Shown here piece by piece: positions 2,438-58,170 of a stretch of DNA of 64,000 bases (the first letter of the stretch is position 1; each line of letters opens with the position of its first letter). The stretch is from Antedon bifida (lineage: Eukaryota > Echinodermata > Crinoidea > Comatulida > Antedonidae): positions 9,207,395 to 9,271,394 of the forward strand of contig OY727100.1 in the NCBI GenBank assembly GCA_963402885.1. The letters run 5' to 3'. The notes below the pieces were generated by a model, which had not been told where the DNA came from, ran no database searches, and saw only the letters and a program-made list of their open reading frames with translations. The position numbers and the translations under genes were made by a program.

Positions 2438-4429
2438 GTAATATTATAATGGATAGCTACTACACTCACTTTCAACATGATACATATTTCATATTCCTGT
2501 TAATGATCAATTATTTTGTGTGTACTTCTTAAATCATCATGTCTTTTGAATGTTTTATAAACCACTTCCATCTGTCAGATATCATATTTCTGTAAATAAT
2601 CTATTATTTGTGTGTACTTCAAATGATTCAAATCTACCTCTTAAACTTGCCTTAACCTCCGTGTTAACACAAGGTCAACAATGTCTTTAGGAGTGTTCTT
2701 GGTTAACTACCAGTGTTTTTGTACCACTTCAAATGTTCATTTCATAATACATATTTTTTTTTAAAGATCAATAGTTCAAATGTTGCTTTTTTTGGGTTTT
2801 ATCACATTTTGCAATGTTGTATGCACATGTTTCCCAAAATAAAACCCTACTCACGCCCCTGTTTAATGACTGTACAGTACATCAAAAACTTAGTATCTTA
2901 TACTTCACAAATGTTTTCAAGCCTGTCATTAAATACAACATATGTGTTATGATTGCATTTTCATGAAATTTTAAAAACGCACTCATTATGTATTTATGAG
3001 AGAATTAGATTGATTTGCTCATCTGGATGTAAATAAAAGAGTTAACTTTCCTAAAGGTGTTAAGATTTTGAAAAAGTCTATTTGAATTAAAATTTAATTT
3101 GAATACTTGTACATGTCATACAATTTGAAGTAATGTAAAATCAATCATTTTGCGTGAAAACTCATCTCGCTAGGACCTGATATGAATTTTAGTCATCATG
3201 TATGTCATGTTTGCCCTTAAGATTGATTTCAACTTTTAAATGTAAATACAATACTATTAATAAAAAAATCAAGTTTTCTTACCATGATGTTTTATATTTT
3301 AAATGTTTTCTGCAATCATTGCAATAGAGTACCTACCCCACCCCTCAAGAAATTATTTTTTACATTATAATGCAAAAGATACCAACACCAACATTCTGGA
3401 TCGGATCCTCCACTGCCACTAGATAGAGAATAGTCCGATTTTGGGGATCCTGTCTCTGCCTGGTTGTGTTTGTTGTTTTTTTCTTGTGTATTGTATTTTT
3501 ATGTATCATTTTGAGGCAAAAATAAAATAATGAAATTATTGATGGTTATATGATTCTCAAAACATGTCGCTTAAATATGAGACTGTTTGTATGTTATTAA
3601 ATGCCTTGTTGTATTTATGCTCATCTGTGGGTATAGATGTGAACATAATTTTAATATTATACACAAAATGGATGAGGAGAATAGTGAAAGTTAAAACAGT
3701 TCAATGAATATTTATCCTATTTGTTCTGTACCACACCAACAAGCTGCTTCCATTTTTAACATATTTTGTCCTATCCAGTTAAATTATATGATATAAAAAT
3801 GTAATTTATAATAAAAGTAGGCCTGGTTATAAATGCAGTGACTAATAGACCCCATTTACACTTTAGCTTTTAGCGAGCCTGAGGCCGGCTCCATTGTCAC
3901 CAGCCATCCTCTTTTCACATACCCAGGTGCACCCTGTTCAACGCCTTGTCTACAGAAATCCCATGTTCATGAGCCTGGCTTTTATAGCAAGATGTCAGCT
4001 TGTATAAGTGTACTATTTCTTTCACCATTTCTACCACCAGCAGCGTAGTGCTTTAATTAACTCCACATGCAAGATACTTAGTAAAAAAGACATTGGGATT
4101 AAATCATTAGATTCTTATCTCTAGGACTATTATCATTGTGTTTACAAATCAAACAGTAAGTTAATCCTACCAGGTAACTGTGAACATTTCACACTTAATG
4201 CTTTCAAGTGCTGTAAGCTGGTGTGAAAATAACAGTTAAAAGCTTGTTTTTTTTCTGTTTCTTTCCATTCTTTTATTATAGACTTTGATAAAACAATGTG
4301 CTCAGATCTACTTTAACTAATAAATTTTATTTAAAAAATGGGAAAACAAATCAAAATCATTGTGTGATTATCCATTTGTAGTACTAAGCCCTGATTGATT
4401 ATTCATCATTTGCTACCTGGTTTACCAGT
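2438..4429. other. AT-rich spacer, no gene seen
   Basis: Short open frames only, including a 79-codon frame at 2713-2952 with no recognisable domain. A slightly GC-richer patch near 3850-4010 was read in all frames and matched nothing I know. Confidence 0.55.
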
Positions 4430-4653
4430 TTTTGTTTGTTTTTTTTTGTTTTATTTATTCAATTTCTTCCATATACAATACATAGAAAAAACAAAACAAA
4501 TATAAAAGGCAAGGAAAGACCAAACAGGTGCTAAACACCTATGCTATATTTTTAAATTGCCAGTGGAAAATACAGGATTTGAAAAAAGAGCCAAACTTTC
4601 CAAATTGCAGGAAATGAGTTCCAAAGTTTGGGTCCATAAGAAATAGCATTGAA
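4430..4653 (-). mobile_element. CR1/L2-type LINE 3' remnant
   Basis: On the minus strand, 4653 to 4552 is an uninterrupted 34-codon frame ending in a stop. It begins FNAISYGPKLWNSFPAIW, which fits the extreme C-terminus of CR1/L2-type LINE reverse transcriptases, where an (F/Y)xxxGxxLWNSLP block is typical. What follows toward 4430 looks like a 3' UTR ending in an AT-rich aataaataaaac tail. The expected reverse transcriptase catalytic core is missing, so this is a 5'-truncated dead copy. The C-terminal tail after the LWNS block has drifted, with Phe where Leu is usual. Confidence 0.6.
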
Positions 4654-4921
4654 GCTGGTGCAGTGTAGGTGTTGTGTGTTGCAGTATTATAAAATAAAAA
4701 TTACATATATTAATAATTGTTTATAACTAGCAATTCTTTTTGAAATTTACTTTTAAATAAAGTAAAACTAGTTTTGTCAATGCCTAGAATAAATTTGTTG
4801 CATGCAATTCAGTTTTTTGAGTTCATTGTTTACTTGTTTAATAAGGTAATTTAGGTTTTTTATGTCAATGTATTAAATTAGTATCTGATCAGCAAAGTTC
4901 CAAATTTTTCCTCCACAGTAT

Positions 4922-12806: not shown

Positions 12807-13110
12807 ACAGTACACATAATTATATTATACATACTTTTAATTGTAAAGTTTTATCATTTCTTTTATAATAATTACTGTAATCTAATATTAATAGAAAACT
12901 TAATATAATTTGATTCTAATAAATTCATAATGAAATGATGATTAAATATATTTAAATATTCATTTGTTCTTCAGTCAAATCAAATGTAACAAAAAGCAAG
13001 ATTTTAACGTTATGAGGTCAACAATTAAGATAAACAAAATTAACCAATAAAAATAAATTAAAGTTATTGTTGGCAGCCGTCTGTCTCGAGAGACAATAGG
13101 TATGCGCCCT

Positions 13111-13590
13111 CTATCCGTCATTCGGTGCAGGGTCACAGCGCCTGCTGTGACTAAAAAGTCCAATTTTTGAGCGGCATGATTTGTCACATTTTGGGCAGAT
13201 GTAGGTCGGCTCCTGGTCGGTTGGAGCAGAGGATGCTCTCTCCTTTCTACGTTTCTTGAGTAGCGTCCATTTCTTGTCGCGTCCACTCTCGCTTGTTTGG
13301 ACACACATCTTGATAGTGGATCTCCACATACTGCGATCGGAGGCAACAGCCTCCCAGTTTGTGACGTTTATGTTTCCCGACTTAAGATCACGCTTGCATA
13401 CGTCTTTAAAGCGTAACATGGGCCTTCCTTTAGGTCTAGTTCCAGTGACAAGCTCACCATAGAGTAAGTCCTTTGGTATTCTTCCGTCATCCATGCGCCT
13501 TACATGGCCGAGCCATCGAAGGCGTCTCTGGGTAAGTAGTGAGTACATGCTGGGCAAACTTGCCCGAGTTAGAACGGTTTTGAGACATGA
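13111..13590 (-). pseudogene. LINE C-terminal domain with zinc knuckle
   Basis: This is the continuation of the retrotransposon frame after a one-base shift near 13577-13584. It carries RRLRWLGHVRRMDDGRIPK, then GTRPKGRPMLRFKDVCKRDL, a hallmark of many invertebrate LINE C-termini, then a basic stretch (KKRRKER). It ends with a Cys/His knuckle of the form C-x2-C-x12-H-x4-C that begins CPKCDKSCRSKIGL, likely for nucleic acid binding. The stop at 13111 appears to be the natural end of the protein. Apart from the frameshift I see no internal stop, so decay is slight. Confidence 0.85.
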
Positions 13591-14160
13591 TCCTGCCATT
13601 TGATGCCGAGTATCCTTCTCAGGCAGCGCAGATGAAATGAACTCAATCTGCGCTCTTGGCGGGTGTAAAGAGACCATGATTCACTGCTGTACAATAGGGT
13701 GCTTAGGACACAAGCCTGGTAGATCTTCATCTTGGTGTTTATAGTCAGCATGCGGTTTTTCCAAACCTTATCTGTTAGGCGAGCCATGGCTGATGTCGCT
13801 TTTCCAATCCTGATGTTGAGTTCGGCGTCAAATGAGAGGTTACTGGAAACAGTGGAACCAAGGTAAATGAACTTGTCCACCACCTCAAGAGTATAATCGC
13901 CGATTTTGATCTTAGGAGGAGCATTGGCTGCGTCTTGACTTAGAACGTTCGTTTTCTTAAGGCTGATGGTAAGGCCAAACTCCTCGCATGCATGTGAGAA
14001 GCAGTCAATGAGGCGCTGGAGTGCTTCTACACTGTGGGCTGTGATGGCAGCGTCATCAGCGAAGAGCAACTCTCTAATGAGTAGACGTCGCACCTTGGTC
14101 TTTGCACGAAGGCGGGCAAGGTTGAAGAGATTTCCGTCACTTCGAGTGTGTAGGTTACTT
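13569..14160 (-). pseudogene. Reverse transcriptase fragment with FADD motif
   Basis: This frame carries RELLFADDAAI, the reverse transcriptase catalytic block C (the two Asp that bind Mg2+), at about 14070-14038. It is followed by GLTISLKKTNVL and KFIYLGSTVSS, which fit blocks D and E, and ALLYSSESW further on. Upstream to about 14158 the same frame stays open (SDGNLFNLARLRAKTKV), so coding starts before the first GTG/ATG-like codon and the true N-terminus is lost. The frame ends at a stop at 13569, just after ILGIKWQDHVS, because of a single-base slip. The product would have copied element RNA into DNA at the chromosomal nick. This copy cannot do so. Confidence 0.88.
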
Positions 14161-19772: not shown

Positions 19773-22700
19773 ATATTCTTCAAAATTATAGCTCTCTAAA
19801 GATTCTTTCCACTTTCATGCAGTGTTTAGGAACATAACGTCAACTCTCCCAATACCGCCTAATACTCCTGGGCTGACCCAAAAAGGTTTTGTTTTTTCAA
19901 TGTAATTTCAATTATTGTTATAAGTATAACACTAGAGAATTTGTCTTATAAATGTGTCTAAAAGGTCATAGCTTATTTTACTAAATGAAAGTCCAGTGTG
20001 ATTGAGCCTTTTTTAGGCTTAAGCAATGTTTTCGGCAAAAGAAAATCCTGGTACTGAATGACACTAAAATTTGCAGTGGAGGATACATGATTTTGAAAAT
20101 AGGTAAAATTTGCAGTGGAGGATACATGATTTTGAAAATAGGAAGATGTTAAGGCCTAAAAATAGGTTAAAAAAAGTGCTAAACTATTATTAACTGTTAT
20201 AATCTTTTACATGACAGTATTTTACTGAAATTTAGAGCCTTAGACACTAGTATCCAATGGCCGATAAGCAAGTATTTTAACCACAAAGCTTTGCCGGGTT
20301 GTACCAGGTAGTACACAATTTATTATTACATAATAACTTGTGCTTTAATACCAAATGATTGTTGCCCTTTAATAGTATGGATCATTTCCTGTTATATTCT
20401 TTATACATGTAATTCTATTGATAAAGAAATGCCAAATTCTCGCACCTTTTGATTCAATCACAATACTACATGCTCAAAGATTTTCTGATAATAGTTCTAC
20501 CTAGTTTGACGTCGTTTTTGTCGGAAATGTTCGGGTCCTTCAAAGGCATTTCTTATCTGACAGATAATTTTTAGATAAATATATTTTCTATGCCTGTTTT
20601 TTTACGTTTTAATAAGATTTTAAGATATACTATTAGAAAAATTAATTGAAACCCATTTATTTATTAGTGTATATAAATTACCGGAAGTTTAACGGTTATT
20701 ATAACATATTATGTATTTAATTTGTTGATATACTATGGTGAAGACAGGCCTAGTAAAGAGATGGCAATGGACTGTTGATAGAAATAGCAGAATATTACTT
20801 AAAGCTTCATTTTTGTATATACCGGAAAATTGTACATAGCCATGGCAATTCCAAAAGTTTATACCATATTTTGCATTTTTTATTCTTTTCTAGGTAGACT
20901 TAAATCCTTTGAAGTTAACCCTTTCATTAGATATTCTTTGATTAGCCTGTTATTGAAAGTATTCTCACTTTTAGTATTACTTTATGGTTTACAGGGTCAA
21001 GTAAAGATAAGTTGATGTATTTTAAGTATATATTTTTTCCTTATACTTTGTTCAGTCAAAACTATTTTCCTAGGGAGCCTGGTGTACCGGCCTATTGTTA
21101 AAGTCCTTTTCCAAGAAGGCTCGTTCTAACACAAAACCATGGAGCAAGTGGACTTGACCCTTTGCCAATTATATTACTATATTTTCGAGGTTTTACTGTA
21201 AACGTTACCTGTCTATCATCTATTGTGCAAATTGTTTCTGTAACAGGTTCTCCCTGAGTTCTTGTTTTTTTCTGATATTGTGTAATTTTCACTGTTTTTT
21301 TTTTTTTTTCATATATGAAATGAAATGATGTTTCCACTTATGATGATGCTCCATTTCCAAAAATTATATATATATATATATTTTTGGAGTATTTTTTTTT
21401 TCTTTATAAACAAAAAACTCCAAAAACAAATTGACCAGAGATAATACATTACTTTAGTGCAAGTATTTGATTTAAACAAATAATATTACAAAACATAAAA
21501 TAATCCTACAACTCCACAATTGGAATTAGTTTATTTGGTAATTTCTAACCTATTATATTTTATAGGTTACTACTGTACAAATAACTGGTAAAGCATGACA
21601 CTCATTGTATTAACAGGTACTTTTACAGTACAAAATAAAAAGTACATCTTACATAGGGTCATCAATACCAAAACAACGTTATTATTACTTTTGTTAGGTT
21701 ATCACATCTAAAGCTTATCAGATGAAAGGAAGGGGTGTTTGTTATCACCCATTCCTTTGATGCTTAGAAAAAACTTCCGCTAAATACCTTGGTTAAAGTC
21801 TAAAATACACTTTAGACCTATATAGCTAGAGGTGGAACCAGTATTTAAATTCAATTGTATGTTTATTGTAGCCTTTTCACAACTGGATTACAGGCAACCA
21901 GATCCCGAAAAAGGGCTGACTTTACATATAGTAATCCTACGAATTGTGCTAATCTAAATTTTGTACTAGTTTCAATGTACTATTGTTTTCTGCTAATACC
22001 ACTGAGGTGCCGATACCCTTTGATGTTACCCCCTCCAGTTCGGATCTGATTCCCTCCCTCCATTCTACTTGTATAAACCGCTATTATTTTCCTATTTGTT
22101 ATGCTTTGATATCAGTTCAGATCGCTATTGCAAGATTACAGTAATTTCTTTTCATATAGCAACAAAAACTTTTCTGGACTGGTGAATGCCTGATGGCTAC
22201 ATGCTTTCAAAAATACCAACAAACAATTGTGCTTGATTGTTGTTGATAAAATTGTATATTATGCCATTTCCTATGTTTTGTGTTAACTTTGGAGTTTCAA
22301 TTACAAGAGTATTGTTTCTGTTTACTTGTTGATTTTTCGATCAAAGACATTTTTAACAATAATTGGTTGCTAATAATACACCACACAACGCGAATATCAA
22401 AAGAATAGTAGTATATGGTGTATTGTTGTTATAGGTAACTAAAATAACTAGAATTAAAATGAGAATTAAAAATTGTGAATTGTAAATATTTAATTGGTAT
22501 TTTTAGAAGGTTATTGTTGAAATTGATTGTTATTTATTACATTTTTGTATGCTACAACTTTAATAAAGATAATTTAATATGAATTTTTTATTTGAACTTT
22601 AATAATAATAATTTCAGTATTATTCAATTTTTTTTAGAGTTATATACAGTTTATTGGTTGTACTTTGGTTTGGTATTTTTCTATTTTTCCCCGTTGTACT

Positions 22701-53219: not shown

Positions 53220-53228
53220 TTTTGGTTT
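53220..53228. repeat. Left 9 bp target-site duplication TTTTGGTTT
   Basis: It is identical to 58162-58170, immediately outside the right end of the foldback element. A 9 bp duplication is the size made by Drosophila FB elements and within the range made by Mutator-like elements. Confidence 0.8.
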
Positions 53229-53428
53229 ATGTCTGTGAAGTTGGTTACTAGTTCCTAGTTCCTAGTTCCTTATTCAAATTCAATTAAAGGGACATTCACA
53301 AATATTTAAAAAAAACAGATTTTAATACGTAATAACTGTCTAATTGAGTTGATATTGCACCAACATGTTAGCCTTGACCTCCCCTACTTCTTCCGGTCAA
53401 AGTTTAATAACATTTTATGCATTTACGC

Positions 53429-54945
53429 CCTCTACGGCGAATAAGTAACTGGCTTTACAAACGTTATAACACTTGACCTGCTTAATTTTTTCAAAATATT
53501 TTGGTATGAATCGATCACCCTTGACCTACTCTACCATTTGCCACTCCAGTTCCGTGAACTTTTTTGCGTCTACGCCCTCTACGGCGAATAAGTAACTGGC
53601 TTTACGAACGTTATAACACTTGACCTACTTAATTTTTTCAAAATATTTTGGTATGGATCGATCACCCTTGACCTACTCTACCTTTTGCCACTCCAGTTCC
53701 GCGAACTTTTTTGCGTCTACGCCCTCTACGGCGAATAAGTAACTGGCTTTACGAACGTTATAACACTTGACCTACTTAATTTTTTCAAAATGTTTTGGTA
53801 TGGATCGATCAACCTTGACCTACTTTACCATTTGCCACCCCAGTTCCGCGAACTTTTTTGCATCTTCGCCCTCTACGGCGAATAAGTAACTGGCTTTACG
53901 AACGTTATAACACTTGACCTGCTTAATTTTTTCAAAATATTTTGGTATGAATCGATCACCCTTGACCTACTCTACCATTTGCCACTCCAGTTCCGCGAAC
54001 TTTTTTGCGTCTACGCCCTCTACGGCGAATAAGTAACTGGCTTTACGAACGTTATAACACTTGACCTACTTAATTTTTTTTTAATGTTTTGGTATGGATC
54101 GATCAACCTTGACCTACTTTACCATTTGCCACCCCAGTTCCGCGAACTTTTTTGCATCTTCGCCCTCTACGGCGAATAAGTAACTGGCTTTACGAACGTT
54201 ATAACACTTGACTTACTTAATTTTTTTTAAATAGTTTGGTATGAATCGATCACCCTTGACCTACTCTACCATTTGCCACCCAGTTCCGCGAACTTTTTTT
54301 GCGTCTACGCCCTCTACGGCGAATAAGTAACTGGCTTTACGAACGTTATAACACTTGACCTGCTTAATTTTTTCAAAATATTTTGGTATGAATCGATCAC
54401 CCTTGACCTACTCTACCATTTGCCACTCCAGTTCCGCGAACTTTTTTGCGTCTACGCCCTCTACGGCGAATAAGTAACTGGCTTTACGAACGTTATAACA
54501 CTTGACCTACTTAATTTTTTTTAAATGTTTTGGTATGGATCGATCAACCTTGACCTACTTTACCATTTGCCACCCCAGTTCCGCGAACTTTTTTGCATCT
54601 TCGCCCTCTACGGCGAATAAGTAACTGGCTTTACGAACGTTATAACACTTGACTTACTTAATTTTTTTTAAATAGTTTGGTATGAATCGATCACCCTTGA
54701 CCTACTCTACCATTTGCCACCCAGTTCCGCGAACTTTTTTTGCGTCTACGCCCTCTACGGCGAATAAGTAACTGGCTTTTACGAACGTTATAACACTTGA
54801 CCTACTTAATTTTTTCCAAATAGTTTTTGCATCGACGCCCTCTACGGCGAATAATTAATTTGTTATGGGTAGATGACCCTTGACTACTTTACCATTTGCC
54901 AAACTAGTTCCGCGAACTTTTACCTGTCCTTTTACGGCGAATTCA
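53429..54945 (+). repeat. 147 bp tandem array, left arm (~10 units plus a partial)
   Basis: The word ataagtaactggctttac starts at 53441, 53588, 53735, 53882, 54029, 54176, 54323, 54470, 54617 and 54764, a constant spacing of 147. A partial unit follows at 54851. Each unit also has atcgatca, ccagttccgcgaac and gccctctacggcgaa. Variants alternate (gcgtctacgcc versus gcatcttcgcc). The blocks around 54061-54300 and 54502-54740 are nearly identical at an offset of 441 (3 x 147), so a three-unit higher-order repeat is present. 147 is 49 codons, but no long frame persists. Confidence 0.93.
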
Positions 54946-56849
54946 TTTTAGTTTTGTTTTGACTTGTTACGATTCTAGAAGATAATTTCTGAAGCAAACA
55001 CAAATACAACAGTTTGGTTAAAAACGATAACCACAAGTTATTTATTCCGTTTTATTCATTAACACTTTTCAACACAAGTAGAACATGACTACCTGAAATT
55101 AAAACAGCATTTAAAGTAGGCTCTATCTTAGTATATAAACTAAGAACTAATAAATAACTTCTTACGTCAACATGTGACGACACACTGCATAGTCATTCAA
55201 TACCACCCCACTTCAATAAATGTTATGCCGGGCTAATTTTTCTCGTTAATTGCAACAGTTGCAATCGATCCCAATGTAATATCTTTTTAAACTTGCTTAC
55301 AGTACCCATTTTATAAAAGCGCACAAACCAAATCTGAACTGACGGTTTTGTTGAATGTCATTACAGCAACTGTTACTTAAAAACAGTTTACACTACCTTA
55401 TAACAGCAAAATTAACATATTATTCATTAATACTGTTACCGTTAATATTAAAAAGCGCACAATATTCATTGAGTGATAATAGTCCTTTAAACACAATATA
55501 CAGTAATATTTTTAAAACTATATTTGTAGTACCCGTCTATACCTCACAAACTAAACAATTGGGTGAAATAGTGTTTGAAAAACGGTTTAGGCTTATAGAC
55601 TTTATAACAACAAAATTAACATATTGTGAAATATGCCTTAACCTTTAATGTGAAACATATTCATTAATAATCCTTTATTAATTAACAATTAAAAAGCGCA
55701 CATTCCCTGGGTGATGAAAGCTGTTTTAAAAACAATACAATAATTGTAATGTAACGAATGTAATGTTGAACTGTAAGTAGCTGAAATAATTTTTTATTTA
55801 ACAATTTAAATATGCCTATTACTACTCTTTCATAACTTATATAACATTATACAATAATTTCTTTCAAAACTGTCAAAAGCAATTTTTTTTCCCATTGCAT
55901 TTTGTTTCCTAGGTAATATGATGTAGGAAGATAATTGTATCTAAATGTTAAGCATCACATTAAGTTGTTTAAATGGTGTTCTTACGCATATCGTTTATGG
56001 CATAAATGTCTTTTATTATAAAATCTATAAATTACTAAATGTTTTACCACTGTAGACCTAGAATGTTTGAACAAATCTCTGAATTAAAAATCACCCACAT
56101 AGGCCTACAATGACATCATCTTACAGTACCCATCTATAAGCGCACAAAAAAAACAAAGCTGAACTAATGTTTTTTTTTTCAAATGTCATTACAGCAACTG
56201 TTACTTAAAAACAGTTTACACTACCTTATAACAGCAAAATTAACATATTCATTAATACTGTTACTGTTAATATTTAAAAGCGCACAATATTCATTGAGTG
56301 ATAATAGTCGTTTAAACACAATATACAGTAATATTTTTAAAACTATATTTGTAGTACCCGTCTATATCTCACAAACTAAACAATTGGGTGAAATAGGCAC
56401 TAATGTGGATTTTTTAAATTTCATGATATCAACTGTTACCTGAAACATATTCATTAATAATCCTTTATTAATTAACAATTCAAGCGCACATTAGTCCTTG
56501 AGTGATAATAGTCGTTTTAAACACAATACAAACAATATTTTTTAAACTATATTTTCTACAGTACCCGTCTATAGCGCACAAAAATAAATGTTGAAATAAT
56601 GTTTTTAAAAAATACCTGAAAACGGTTTAGGCTAATAGACTTTATAATATCAAAATTAAGATATTCATTAATAATCCTTTAACCATTAATATTGCCAATT
56701 AAAAAGCACATATTCTTCCATGAGGTATAAAAGTTGTAAAGAGAATACAACAATTTTGATCGAAAGTAATTTTTTTAACTAAGTTGTTTTACCTAATACA
56801 TTACCCATTATAGTGTACAAAGAAAACAATTATGTGAAATAATGTTATT
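54946..56849. repeat. Middle domain of the foldback element: degenerate repeats
   Basis: It contains a second repeat family. The word gtaccc(g/a)tctata recurs near 55529, 56125, 56355 and 56560 (a variant near 55302), each time close to gcgcacaaa or tcacaaact. Other shared words are gagtgataatagtc and cattaataatcc. 55355-55560 and 56183-56388 are almost identical with an 828 base offset. Two short frames of 97 and 86 codons that start alike come from this duplication and are not independent genes. No transposase, helicase or polymerase motif is visible. Confidence 0.7.
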
Positions 56850-56861
56850 CATACCAAATTA

Positions 56862-57964
56862 ATTTGAAAACATTAAGTAGGTCAAGTGTTATAACGTTCG
56901 TAAAAGCCAGTTACTTATTCGCCGTAGAAGGCGTAGACGCAAAAAAGTTCGCGGAACTGGGGTGGCAAATGGTAGAGTAGGTAAAGGGTGATCGATTCAT
57001 ACCAAAATATTTTGAAAAAATTAAGTAGGTCAAGTGTTATAACGTTCGTAAAAGCCAGTTACTTATTCGCCGTTGAGGGCGTAGACGCAAAAAAGTTCGC
57101 GGAACTGGGGTGGCAAATGGTAGAGTAGGTCAAGGGTGATCGATCCATACCAAAATATTTTGAAAAAATTAAGTAGGTCAAGTGTTATAACGTTCGTAAA
57201 GCCAGTTACTTATTCGCCGTAGAGGGCGTAGATGCAAAAAAGTTCGCGGAACTGGGGTGGCAAATGGTAAAGTAGGTCAAGGGTGATCGATTCATACCAA
57301 AATATTTTGAAAAAAATATATAGGTCAAGTGTTATAACGTTCGTAAAAGCCAGTTACTTATTCGCCGTTGAGGGCGTAGACGCAAAAAAGTTCGCGGAAC
57401 TGGGGTGGAAAATGATAGAAAAGGTCAAGGGTGATCGATCTATACCAAAATATTTTGAAAAAATTAAGTAGGTCAAGTGTTATAACGTTCGTAAAGCCAG
57501 TTACTTATTCGTCGTAGAGGGCGTAGATGCCAAAAAGTTCGCGGAACTGGGGTGGCAAATGGTGAAGTAGGTCAAGGGTGATCGATTCATACCAAAACAT
57601 TTTGAAAAAATTAAGTAGGTCAGGTGTTATAACGTTTGTAAAGCCAGTTACTTATTCGCCGTAGAGGGCGTAGACGCAAAAAAGTTCGCGGAACTGGGGT
57701 AGCAATTGGTAGAGTAGGTCAAGGGTGATCGATCCATACCAAAATATTTTGAAAAAATTAAGTAGGTCAAGTGTTATAACGTTCGTAAAGCCAGTTACTT
57801 ATTCGCCGTAGAGGGCGTAGACGCAAAAAAGTTCGCGGAACTGGGGTGGCAAATGGTAGAGTAGGTCAAGGGTGATCGATCCATACCAAAATATTTTGAA
57901 AAAAGGAAGTAGGTCAAGTATTATAACGTTCGTAAAAGCTAGTTACTTATTCGCCGTAGAGGGT
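56862..57964 (-). repeat. 147-148 bp tandem array, right arm (~8 units), inverted
   Basis: The reverse complement of the left-arm unit repeats with ttacttattc at 56911, 57059, 57206, 57354, 57501, 57648, 57795 and 57943 (spacing 147 or 148). The extra base is an added A in gtaaaagcc versus gtaaagcc. Units with gccgttgagg (57059 and 57354) sit two apart, hinting at a dimeric higher-order pattern unlike the left arm. Each unit carries AGGTCA twice. Confidence 0.92.
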
Positions 57965-58161
57965 GTAAATGCATAAAATGTTATTGAACTTTGACCGGAA
58001 GAAGTAGAGGAGGTTAAGGCTAACATGTTGATGCAATAACAAATCAATTAGACAGTTATTACGTATTAAAATCTGTTTTTAAAAATATTTGTGACTGTCC
58101 CTTTAATTGAATTTGAATAAGGAACTAGGAACTAGGAACTAGTAACCAACTTCACAGACAT

Positions 58162-58170
58162 TTTTGGTTT
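58162..58170. repeat. Right 9 bp target-site duplication TTTTGGTTT
   Basis: Identical to 53220-53228. The next base outside differs between the two sides, except that an A follows the right copy where the left element also starts with A. A 10 bp reading would leave an unpaired T at the right end. Confidence 0.8.

What the first reader, a model, noticed from the sequence alone, without database searches (positions are those of the whole stretch)
53229..58161. Complete 4.9 kb foldback-type transposon whose arms are tandem arrays
Seen: inverted ends starting ATGTCTGTGAAGTTGG, a 9 bp direct repeat TTTTGGTTT on both sides, and arms made of an outer unique part plus oppositely oriented 147 bp arrays. 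Known: FB of Drosophila, TU of sea urchin and Galileo have long inverted repeats with internal tandem units; FB makes 9 bp duplications and Mutator-like elements 8-11 bp. Inference: a non-autonomous element of this type, possibly a new family since I recognise no named one.
Basis: partly seen in the sequence, partly recalled or inferred. Interest (0 to 1): 0.88.

Follow-up and report, generated by a model that had tools for sequence, protein, structure and literature searches.

The report
Recently active foldback transposon with arrays
The stretch is one copy of a family of jumping DNA elements in an animal genome, with long mirror-image arms built from tandem 147-base repeats; identical copies on different chromosomes show that the family jumped very recently, and a 17.6 kb relative carries the likely transposase gene.

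Summary
Window 53229-58161 is a 4,933 bp element with identical 16 bp inverted ends, ~184 bp outer domains, oppositely oriented 147 bp arrays (9.6 and 7.7 copies) and an exact 9 bp duplication. The genome holds 173 such ends (controls 3). Of 39 inverted pairs held whole, 31 have exact 9-10 bp duplications, 3 one mismatch, 5 none. Two paralogous empty sites were found. Three size classes (4, 4 and 3 copies, mostly on different chromosomes) differ by 0-1 base in 4.1-4.6 kb, so the family moved very recently. The window copy looks like a deletion derivative of a 17.6 kb element that carries a multi-exon gene with a D-D-E-like core, in-frame 46-residue repeats and perhaps a cysteine-peptidase end. 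Anatomy and duplication length fit Rehavkus; Rehavkus-1_TC of Tribolium also has tandem repeats in its inverted ends. Pfam's MULE model does not match the core, and no Rehavkus sequence was at hand. The mitochondrial code suggests an echinoderm or hemichordate host. A new member of a known kind, transposase unclassified.

The parts
53220..53228 (.). left copy of the 9 bp target-site duplication TTTTGGTTT
53229..53412 (+). left outer domain (terminal inverted repeat, starts ATGTCTGTGAAGTTGG; CTAGTTCC mini-repeats near the end)
   Evidence: at least 41 genomic matches to 53229-53420
53413..54827 (+). left array, 9.6 units of 147 bp
54828..56849 (+). middle domain: degenerate unit at its left edge, then sequence 99.3% identical (54930-56840) to the 17.6 kb element on C10
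55346..55571 (+). first copy of a direct duplication inside the middle domain
   Evidence: D4, D8
56174..56396 (+). second copy of the same duplication, ~825 bp on
   Evidence: D4, D8
56847..56849 (.). 3 bp overlap at the junction of the inferred ~12.5 kb internal deletion relative to the 17.6 kb element
56850..57978 (-). right array, 7.7 units of 147 bp, opposite orientation
57979..58161 (-). right outer domain (terminal inverted repeat)
58162..58170 (.). right copy of the 9 bp target-site duplication TTTTGGTTT

Best explanation
The feature is a non-autonomous, foldback-type, cut-and-paste DNA transposon. It most likely arose by an internal deletion (3 bp overlap at the junction) from a 17.6 kb autonomous-type element. 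A D-D-E transposase made by that larger element (candidate: the C10 copy) binds the 184 bp ends, and probably repeated sites in the 147 bp units, cuts out the element and inserts it at staggered breaks that leave 9-10 bp duplications. Shown here: insertion at many different sites with duplications, sharp ends, paralogous empty sites, near-identical copies, and a gene-carrying relative with the same ends. Inferred: that this gene's product is the enzyme, that the core is a D-D-E domain, that the arrays are binding platforms, and that array length changes by unequal exchange or slippage. Likely class: Rehavkus-like, in the wide MULE/Foldback sense (about 0.55 on its own); the confidence below is for the transposon reading with mobilisation in trans.
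For: Ends: 86+87 copies of the end 16-mer, controls 1+2. Duplications: 31 of 39 pairs exact at 9-10 bp, 3 of 39 with one mismatch; the 28 exact 9-mers listed are all different. Boundaries: background identity just outside 74 ends. Empty sites: a nested insertion inside another copy's end (L057, TSD ATTAAAGGG; the unbroken site is read in 72 of 79 held ends), and L034, whose joined flanks match L026 across the junction (32 of 32 bases; 537 bp at 98.3% with 4 mismatches and 2 gaps); L034 is the 1 true case among 36 pairs tested that way. Recency: 4608 bp class (4 copies), 4136 bp class (4 copies) and 4272 bp class (3 copies), 0-1 differences within each, each copy with its own duplication. Parent: window 53413-56849 matches L021:980-4422 at 96.6%, and 56893-58162 matches L022:6864-8127 at 97.6%. 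Gene: a 1855-residue open frame on C10; D539, D611, CxxH 658-661 and E845 (P0001 numbering) kept in L061, a relative 30-34% identical; GT-AG introns joining in frame; dN/dS about 0.35 against the C14 copy.
Against: Five of 39 pairs have no duplication (L026, L028, L032, L033 and the 17.7 kb C12 copy), and 28 of the 100 ends listed have no partner within 20 kb. Only one copy with an unbroken core frame was found and its first exon was not located. Pfam gives no transposase domain in the core, only sub-threshold hits such as DUF4650 at E 0.0011. A profile comparison with MULEs of the same genome found nothing, no better than an unrelated Harbinger protein (very shallow profiles). No expression or excision data. 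The dN/dS used only codons in locally similar stretches, which lowers it.
Confidence: 0.9

Rival explanations
1. The transposase belongs to no described superfamily (or to enzymes with a large insertion between the second D and the E, such as hAT-like ones), and the likeness to Rehavkus is convergent.
For: The Pfam MULE model does not match the core although it finds 33 places elsewhere in this genome; the second D and the E lie 234 residues apart, which I recall as long for MULEs; no PHD-like pattern in six frames of L021-L024; hhalign against three own-genome MULEs gives Probab 0.09 on its 0-100 scale.
Against: 9-10 bp duplications, arrays in the inverted ends and in-frame minisatellites match published Rehavkus traits. 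The core profile compared was very shallow (Neff 1.39), so the missing match says little.
Confidence: 0.25
2. A sea urchin TU-type or Galileo-type foldback element.
For: Same general anatomy (long inverted arms with tandem units); host probably a relative of sea urchins.
Against: Recalled, from no call: TU has 8 bp duplications and 15 bp units, Galileo 7 bp duplications; here 9-10 bp and 147 bp. No P-type domain in the pieces scanned; a THAP domain in the unlocated first exon would have been missed.
Confidence: 0.05
3. A palindromic satellite or segmental duplication that merely looks like an element.
For: Tandem arrays dominate the arms; some unpaired ends share identical flanks, as segmental duplicates do (L067-L069, L075/L076, L077/L078, both ends in L060).
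Against: Sharp boundaries, a different duplication at each of the 28 insertions with exact 9-mers, and empty sites. In the first 100 listed of 952 unit sites I see no long satellite block.
Confidence: 0.01

Closest known systems
Rehavkus-1_TC (Tribolium castaneum, Repbase; described in PMC10218199, passages seen)
   Same: DNA transposon of 9.5 kb whose inverted termini hold short arrays, mostly five and eight units, of a 164 bp repeat. The Rehavkus row of the table in PMC6446971 gives 9 bp duplications and a minisatellite in the C-terminal part (passages).
   Different: 147 bp unit and 17.6 kb length here; in-frame repeats on both sides of the core; no PHD finger found; host probably an echinoderm or hemichordate, while PMC6446971 (section 8) calls Rehavkus restricted to insects and annelids. 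Sequence relation untested.
Tetris (Drosophila virilis, PMC4079207; abstract and section 10 seen)
   Same: Foldback element with an outer flanking domain, then ~220 bp tandem units, then a middle domain; 8-10 bp duplications; unit number varies.
   Different: Tetris has no apparent coding capacity and its units feed kb-size satellite arrays; here a gene-carrying relative exists and no long satellite was seen among the listed sites.
Tm1 (Meloidogyne, PMC3169594; passages seen)
   Same: Foldback-like composite ends, mostly 9 bp duplications, transposase-bearing and deleted forms.
   Different: Tm1-A encodes a 496 aa protein with FLYWCH and MULE domains; the core here matches neither in Pfam.
Galileo (PMC3688188; abstract seen)
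   Same: Long inverted ends with tandem repeats; further transposase binding sites were identified in those repeats.
   Different: P-superfamily transposase with THAP domain; no P-type domain found in the pieces scanned here.
Ginger1 and other transposons with OTU, Ulp1 or C19 peptidases (PMC2836005; passages seen)
   Same: Transposase with a C-terminal ubiquitin/SUMO-type cysteine peptidase domain.
   Different: Here the only likeness is a weak one to USPL1 (E 0.11), and Pfam recognises neither the peptidase nor the core.

Membership tests
Foldback-type element (structural class) | long inverted arms made of tandem units, flanking a middle domain | tested here: met
Foldback-type element (structural class) | mobile: site duplications at many independent insertions | tested here: met
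   31 of 39 exact, 3 of 39 one mismatch, 5 of 39 none
Rehavkus | 9 bp target-site duplication | tested here: met
   three exact ones are 10 bp (L036, L043 and the C10 element)
Rehavkus | tandem repeats in the inverted termini (as in Rehavkus-1_TC) | tested here: met
   compared with PMC10218199 (passages)
Rehavkus | minisatellite in the C-terminal part / before the 3' TIR | tested here: met
   138 bp in-frame arrays on both sides of the core
Rehavkus | PHD finger in the transposase | tested here: inconclusive
   none by Pfam in the coding pieces scanned nor by a C4HC3 pattern in six frames of L021-L024; a finger split by an intron or in an unlocated exon would be missed
Rehavkus | transposase sequence in the Rehavkus clade | not testable with these tools
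   I found no Rehavkus protein sequence in the libraries offered
MULE (Mutator) | PF10551 MULE domain | tested here: not met
   no PF10551 match to the core at E up to 10; 33 other places in the genome do match
MULE (Mutator) | 8-11 bp target-site duplication (range recalled; the table seen gives 9-11 and 9 bp for some groups) | tested here: met
   9-10 bp
Galileo / P superfamily | P-type transposase domain | tested here: not met
   no such Pfam match in the core or C-terminal part at E up to 10
Galileo / P superfamily | THAP domain | tested here: inconclusive
   none in the pieces scanned, but the first exon was not located
FB-NOF of Drosophila | NOF-type protein | not testable with these tools
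   no NOF sequence at hand

The most novel reading that the evidence does not exclude
The 17.6 kb element represents a transposase lineage of its own: a D-D-E enzyme with in-frame 46-residue repeats on both sides of the core and a C-terminal USPL1-like SUMO/ubiquitin peptidase. It has at least one further, 30-34% identical relative in this genome (C12:12344 copy, L061, which keeps the catalytic motifs and the Cys box), and it builds foldback arms from repeats of its own end sequence.
Probability: 0.25. Interest if true: 0.62.

Novelty: new member of a known kind. Interest (0 to 1): 0.52.

Why it matters
Some foldback families, such as Tetris, are known only as non-autonomous copies whose enzyme is missing (PMC4079207). 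Here one genome holds a candidate parent gene, deletion derivatives, and 11 near-identical recent copies in three size classes. That makes two open questions testable: which enzyme moves such elements, and how their arm arrays grow. If the Rehavkus link holds, it would add a deuterostome-type host to a group that PMC6446971 (section 8) calls restricted to insects and annelids; I could not check Repbase itself.

Tried and rejected
Swapped duplications as a sign of recombination between copies: none among 101 ends compared; the only hits were identical flanks of probable segmental duplicates. Searches of Pfam, the PDB sequences and hhalign for the core gave nothing usable. Sub-threshold Pfam hits were left aside: Tox-HDC E 0.0045, USH1C_N 0.03 and WWE_4 0.32 on the repeat-bearing frame, DUF4650 E 0.0011 on the core, two on an L061 piece. 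The comparison with an own-genome Harbinger protein scored as low as that with the MULEs. The fragment alignment A1 was poor and was not used. Rfam found nothing in the window or in L021. The empty-site test on 36 pairs printed eight rows; one (L034 in L026) is a true empty site and the others are right-hand junctions of filled sites. An ungapped comparison of the rejoined L057 outer end gave 5, 5 and 9 mismatches of 183 for L032, L042 and L053 but 73-80 for the window, L030 and L037, I think because of indels. A fourth size group held copies of unequal length and gave no comparison. The paper searches for sea urchin TU elements, for echinoderm MuDR-Foldback elements, for USPL1 in transposons and for crinoid genomes gave no direct answer in their listings. 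The USPL1 likeness (E 0.11) ranks below a chance-looking antibody hit (E 0.021) in the same table; I keep it only because it aligns the His and Asp boxes and because the Cys box recurs in L061. The USPL1 idea itself and the box names come from recall.
Full report
What is there. Searches confirm the described anatomy: TTTTGGTTT at 53220-53228 and 58162-58170; mirror-image ends ATGTCTGTGAAGTTGG at 53229 and 58161; a ~184 bp outer domain on each side; 147 bp arrays at 53413-54827 (9.6 units) and 56850-57978 (7.7 units, opposite orientation); and a middle domain with an internal duplication. The two outer ends are 94.5% identical over 181 bp. The longest exact inverted match is 127 bp, against at most 20 bp in 50 base-shuffled copies.

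The family. The window lies in a 315.6 Mb genome held as G000. The outer 192 bp has at least 41 matches (a lower bound: 40 of 188 candidates were scored). The end 16-mer with up to one mismatch occurs 86+87 times, against 1+2 for the reversed control. One search listed 100 of the 173 ends; these make 36 inverted pairs within 20 kb and 28 ends without a partner. I fetched all 36 pairs, two further pairs known (L058, L059), and count the window copy: 39 pairs. Further copies on C13-C15 seen were not fetched whole. Of the 39, 31 have exact 9 or 10 bp duplications, 3 have one mismatch (L040, L045, L048), and 5 have none (L026, L028, L032, L033 and the C12 17.7 kb copy) (the C10 duplication TGCTTCCTCT and the lack of one in C12 are read from the strings printed). 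The 28 exact 9-mers are all different; I see no strong base preference in their counts. In 74 ends of 37 pairs the commonest base falls to 0.27-0.49 of copies in the 40 bases outside. The first 16 bases inside are identical by selection, since ends were picked by that word, but bases 17-35 remain at 0.95-1.00. The array anchor occurs 952 times genome-wide, control 0; among the first 100 listed sites I see only short arrays.

Empty sites. In L057 a 3,400 bp copy sits inside the outer end of another copy, flanked by ATTAAAGGG; the unbroken site is read in 72 of 79 held ends (the other 7 lack the exact 14-mer for reasons I did not sort). The L034 copy (TSD GCATGTGTT) lies in a repeated sequence whose uninterrupted version is inside L026: the 32 bases across the junction are identical, and the joined flanks align from query position 1 to 537, across the junction at 500, at 98.3% with 4 mismatches and 2 gaps. 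Of 36 pairs tested this way against the sequence in hand, only L034 gave a true empty site. Both cases are paralogous, not allelic.

Recency. L043, L050 and L056 (4,608 bp) are identical and L037 differs from each by one base; L034, L036 and L047 (4,136 bp) are identical and L030 differs by one; L052 and L058 (4,272 bp) are identical and L059 differs by one. They lie on different chromosomes, except that L037 and L043 are both on C8, and each has its own duplication. This is strong evidence for recent movement, by enzyme supplied in trans if these copies lack a gene, as their length suggests. The window copy is from another branch: its middle domain is 99.3% identical to the C10 17.6 kb element; of the 12 other copies compared, nine align over the whole of it at 96.9-98.9%, L024 is more diverged (87.5% over 1.75 kb), and L030 and L058 match in two pieces.

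The parent. The C10 pair spans 17,626 bp. Window 53413-56849 matches its left part at 96.6% and 56893-58162 its right part at 97.6%. The two matches overlap by 3 bp at window 56847-56849, so about 12.5 kb is missing in the window copy; the exact right-hand breakpoint is uncertain by whole array units. The missing part holds a minus-strand gene with one open frame of 1,855 residues. It contains 46-residue (138 bp) repeats before and after a 625-residue core. The core has LDATGSI (D539), ETDYSF (D611), CAAH (658-661) and NAPVEGW (E845) in P0001 numbering; that these are a D-D-E triad with a CxxH motif is my reading from recall. All are kept in L061, a broken relative 30-34% identical. The core was found at four places in the genome: C10 unbroken, C12 with a frame break, C14 with stops, and C12:12344 diverged. 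Downstream, two introns with GT-AG borders lead in frame to a last exon (joined by hand), and the same splice-site strings stand in the C12 copy. The C-terminal part begins with NTCTVDNFL and ends with a GHFVSV...WLYYDG box. Its PDB search gives SUMO isopeptidase USPL1 at E 0.11, below a chance-looking antibody hit, and Pfam gives nothing. So 'USPL1-like cysteine peptidase' is a lead only, helped by the NTCTIDN box in L061. Against the C14 copy dN/dS is about 0.35 over 562 codons; only codons in 15-residue stretches with at least 70% amino-acid identity were used and stops were dropped, which lowers the ratio. In the C14 copy the motif that flanks the C-terminal repeats in C10 runs on towards the downstream sequence without them, so that array may be a later insertion in C10 (inference).

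Mechanism. Shown: insertion with 9-10 bp duplications, conserved ends, recent copying, and a gene-carrying relative with the same ends and flanking sequence. Inferred: the C10 protein is the transposase; it binds the outer ends and possibly each 147 bp unit, as was found for Galileo's repeats (PMC3688188, abstract). Among 113 distinct 147 bp units the longest run above 98% constancy away from the harvest anchor is ATCGATCA, and the unit has short dyads. Anchor counts per orientation range from 0 to 13, or 15 where L057 includes a nested copy, which fits unequal exchange or slippage.

Host. The mitochondrial COX1 scores higher with the echinoderm/flatworm code (811.9 bits) than with the invertebrate code (787 bits). 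All 4 AAA codons in the stretch read fall on Asn of mammalian COX1. The close alignment to mammalian COX1 speaks for an echinoderm or hemichordate rather than a flatworm (inference).

Comparison with what is known. Structurally this is a foldback element. On duplication length, arrays in inverted termini and coding minisatellite it resembles Rehavkus (PMC6446971, passages and section 8; PMC10218199, passages). I could not test the sequence relation. The MULE Pfam domain was tested and not met, though 33 other places of this genome match it, so I do not file it as a canonical MULE. The PHD finger reported for Rehavkus was not found, but the test is inconclusive. I therefore call it 'works like, and probably is, a Rehavkus-type foldback element', at about 0.55.

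Noticed in passing
window 12975-14159, minus strand: Probable remnant of a non-LTR retrotransposon: reverse transcriptase match (PF00078, E 1.3e-6, 28.7 bits, just under its cut-off of 29.6) and a weak C2H2 finger-like match in an overlapping frame.
   Followed up: no
window 20065-20142: Perfect two-copy tandem repeat of 39 bp.
   Followed up: no
L025:2719-4654: The 8.9 kb copy on C1 holds a DDE_Tnp_4 (PIF/Harbinger-type) transposase frame (E 3.7e-27 for 3800-4654), probably a nested foreign insertion.
   Followed up: partly
L067, L068, L069 (C7); L075/L076 (C8); L077/L078 (C9); L060 (C7): Ends with identical 12-base flanks at different places, so the inserted element was probably duplicated later with its surroundings.
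   Followed up: partly
window 53413-54827 and 56850-57978: The unit length, 147 bp, equals the DNA length of a nucleosome core (recalled); may be coincidence, as comparable elements use 164 and ~220 bp units.
   Followed up: no
L021:5985-9998 (minus strand): The motif GWQKKRRKGRTNVFHPKQSTKTVN occurs twice in the frame, at residues 906 and 1173 of P0001, on both sides of the C-terminal repeats, as if that array arose or entered by duplication.
   Followed up: partly
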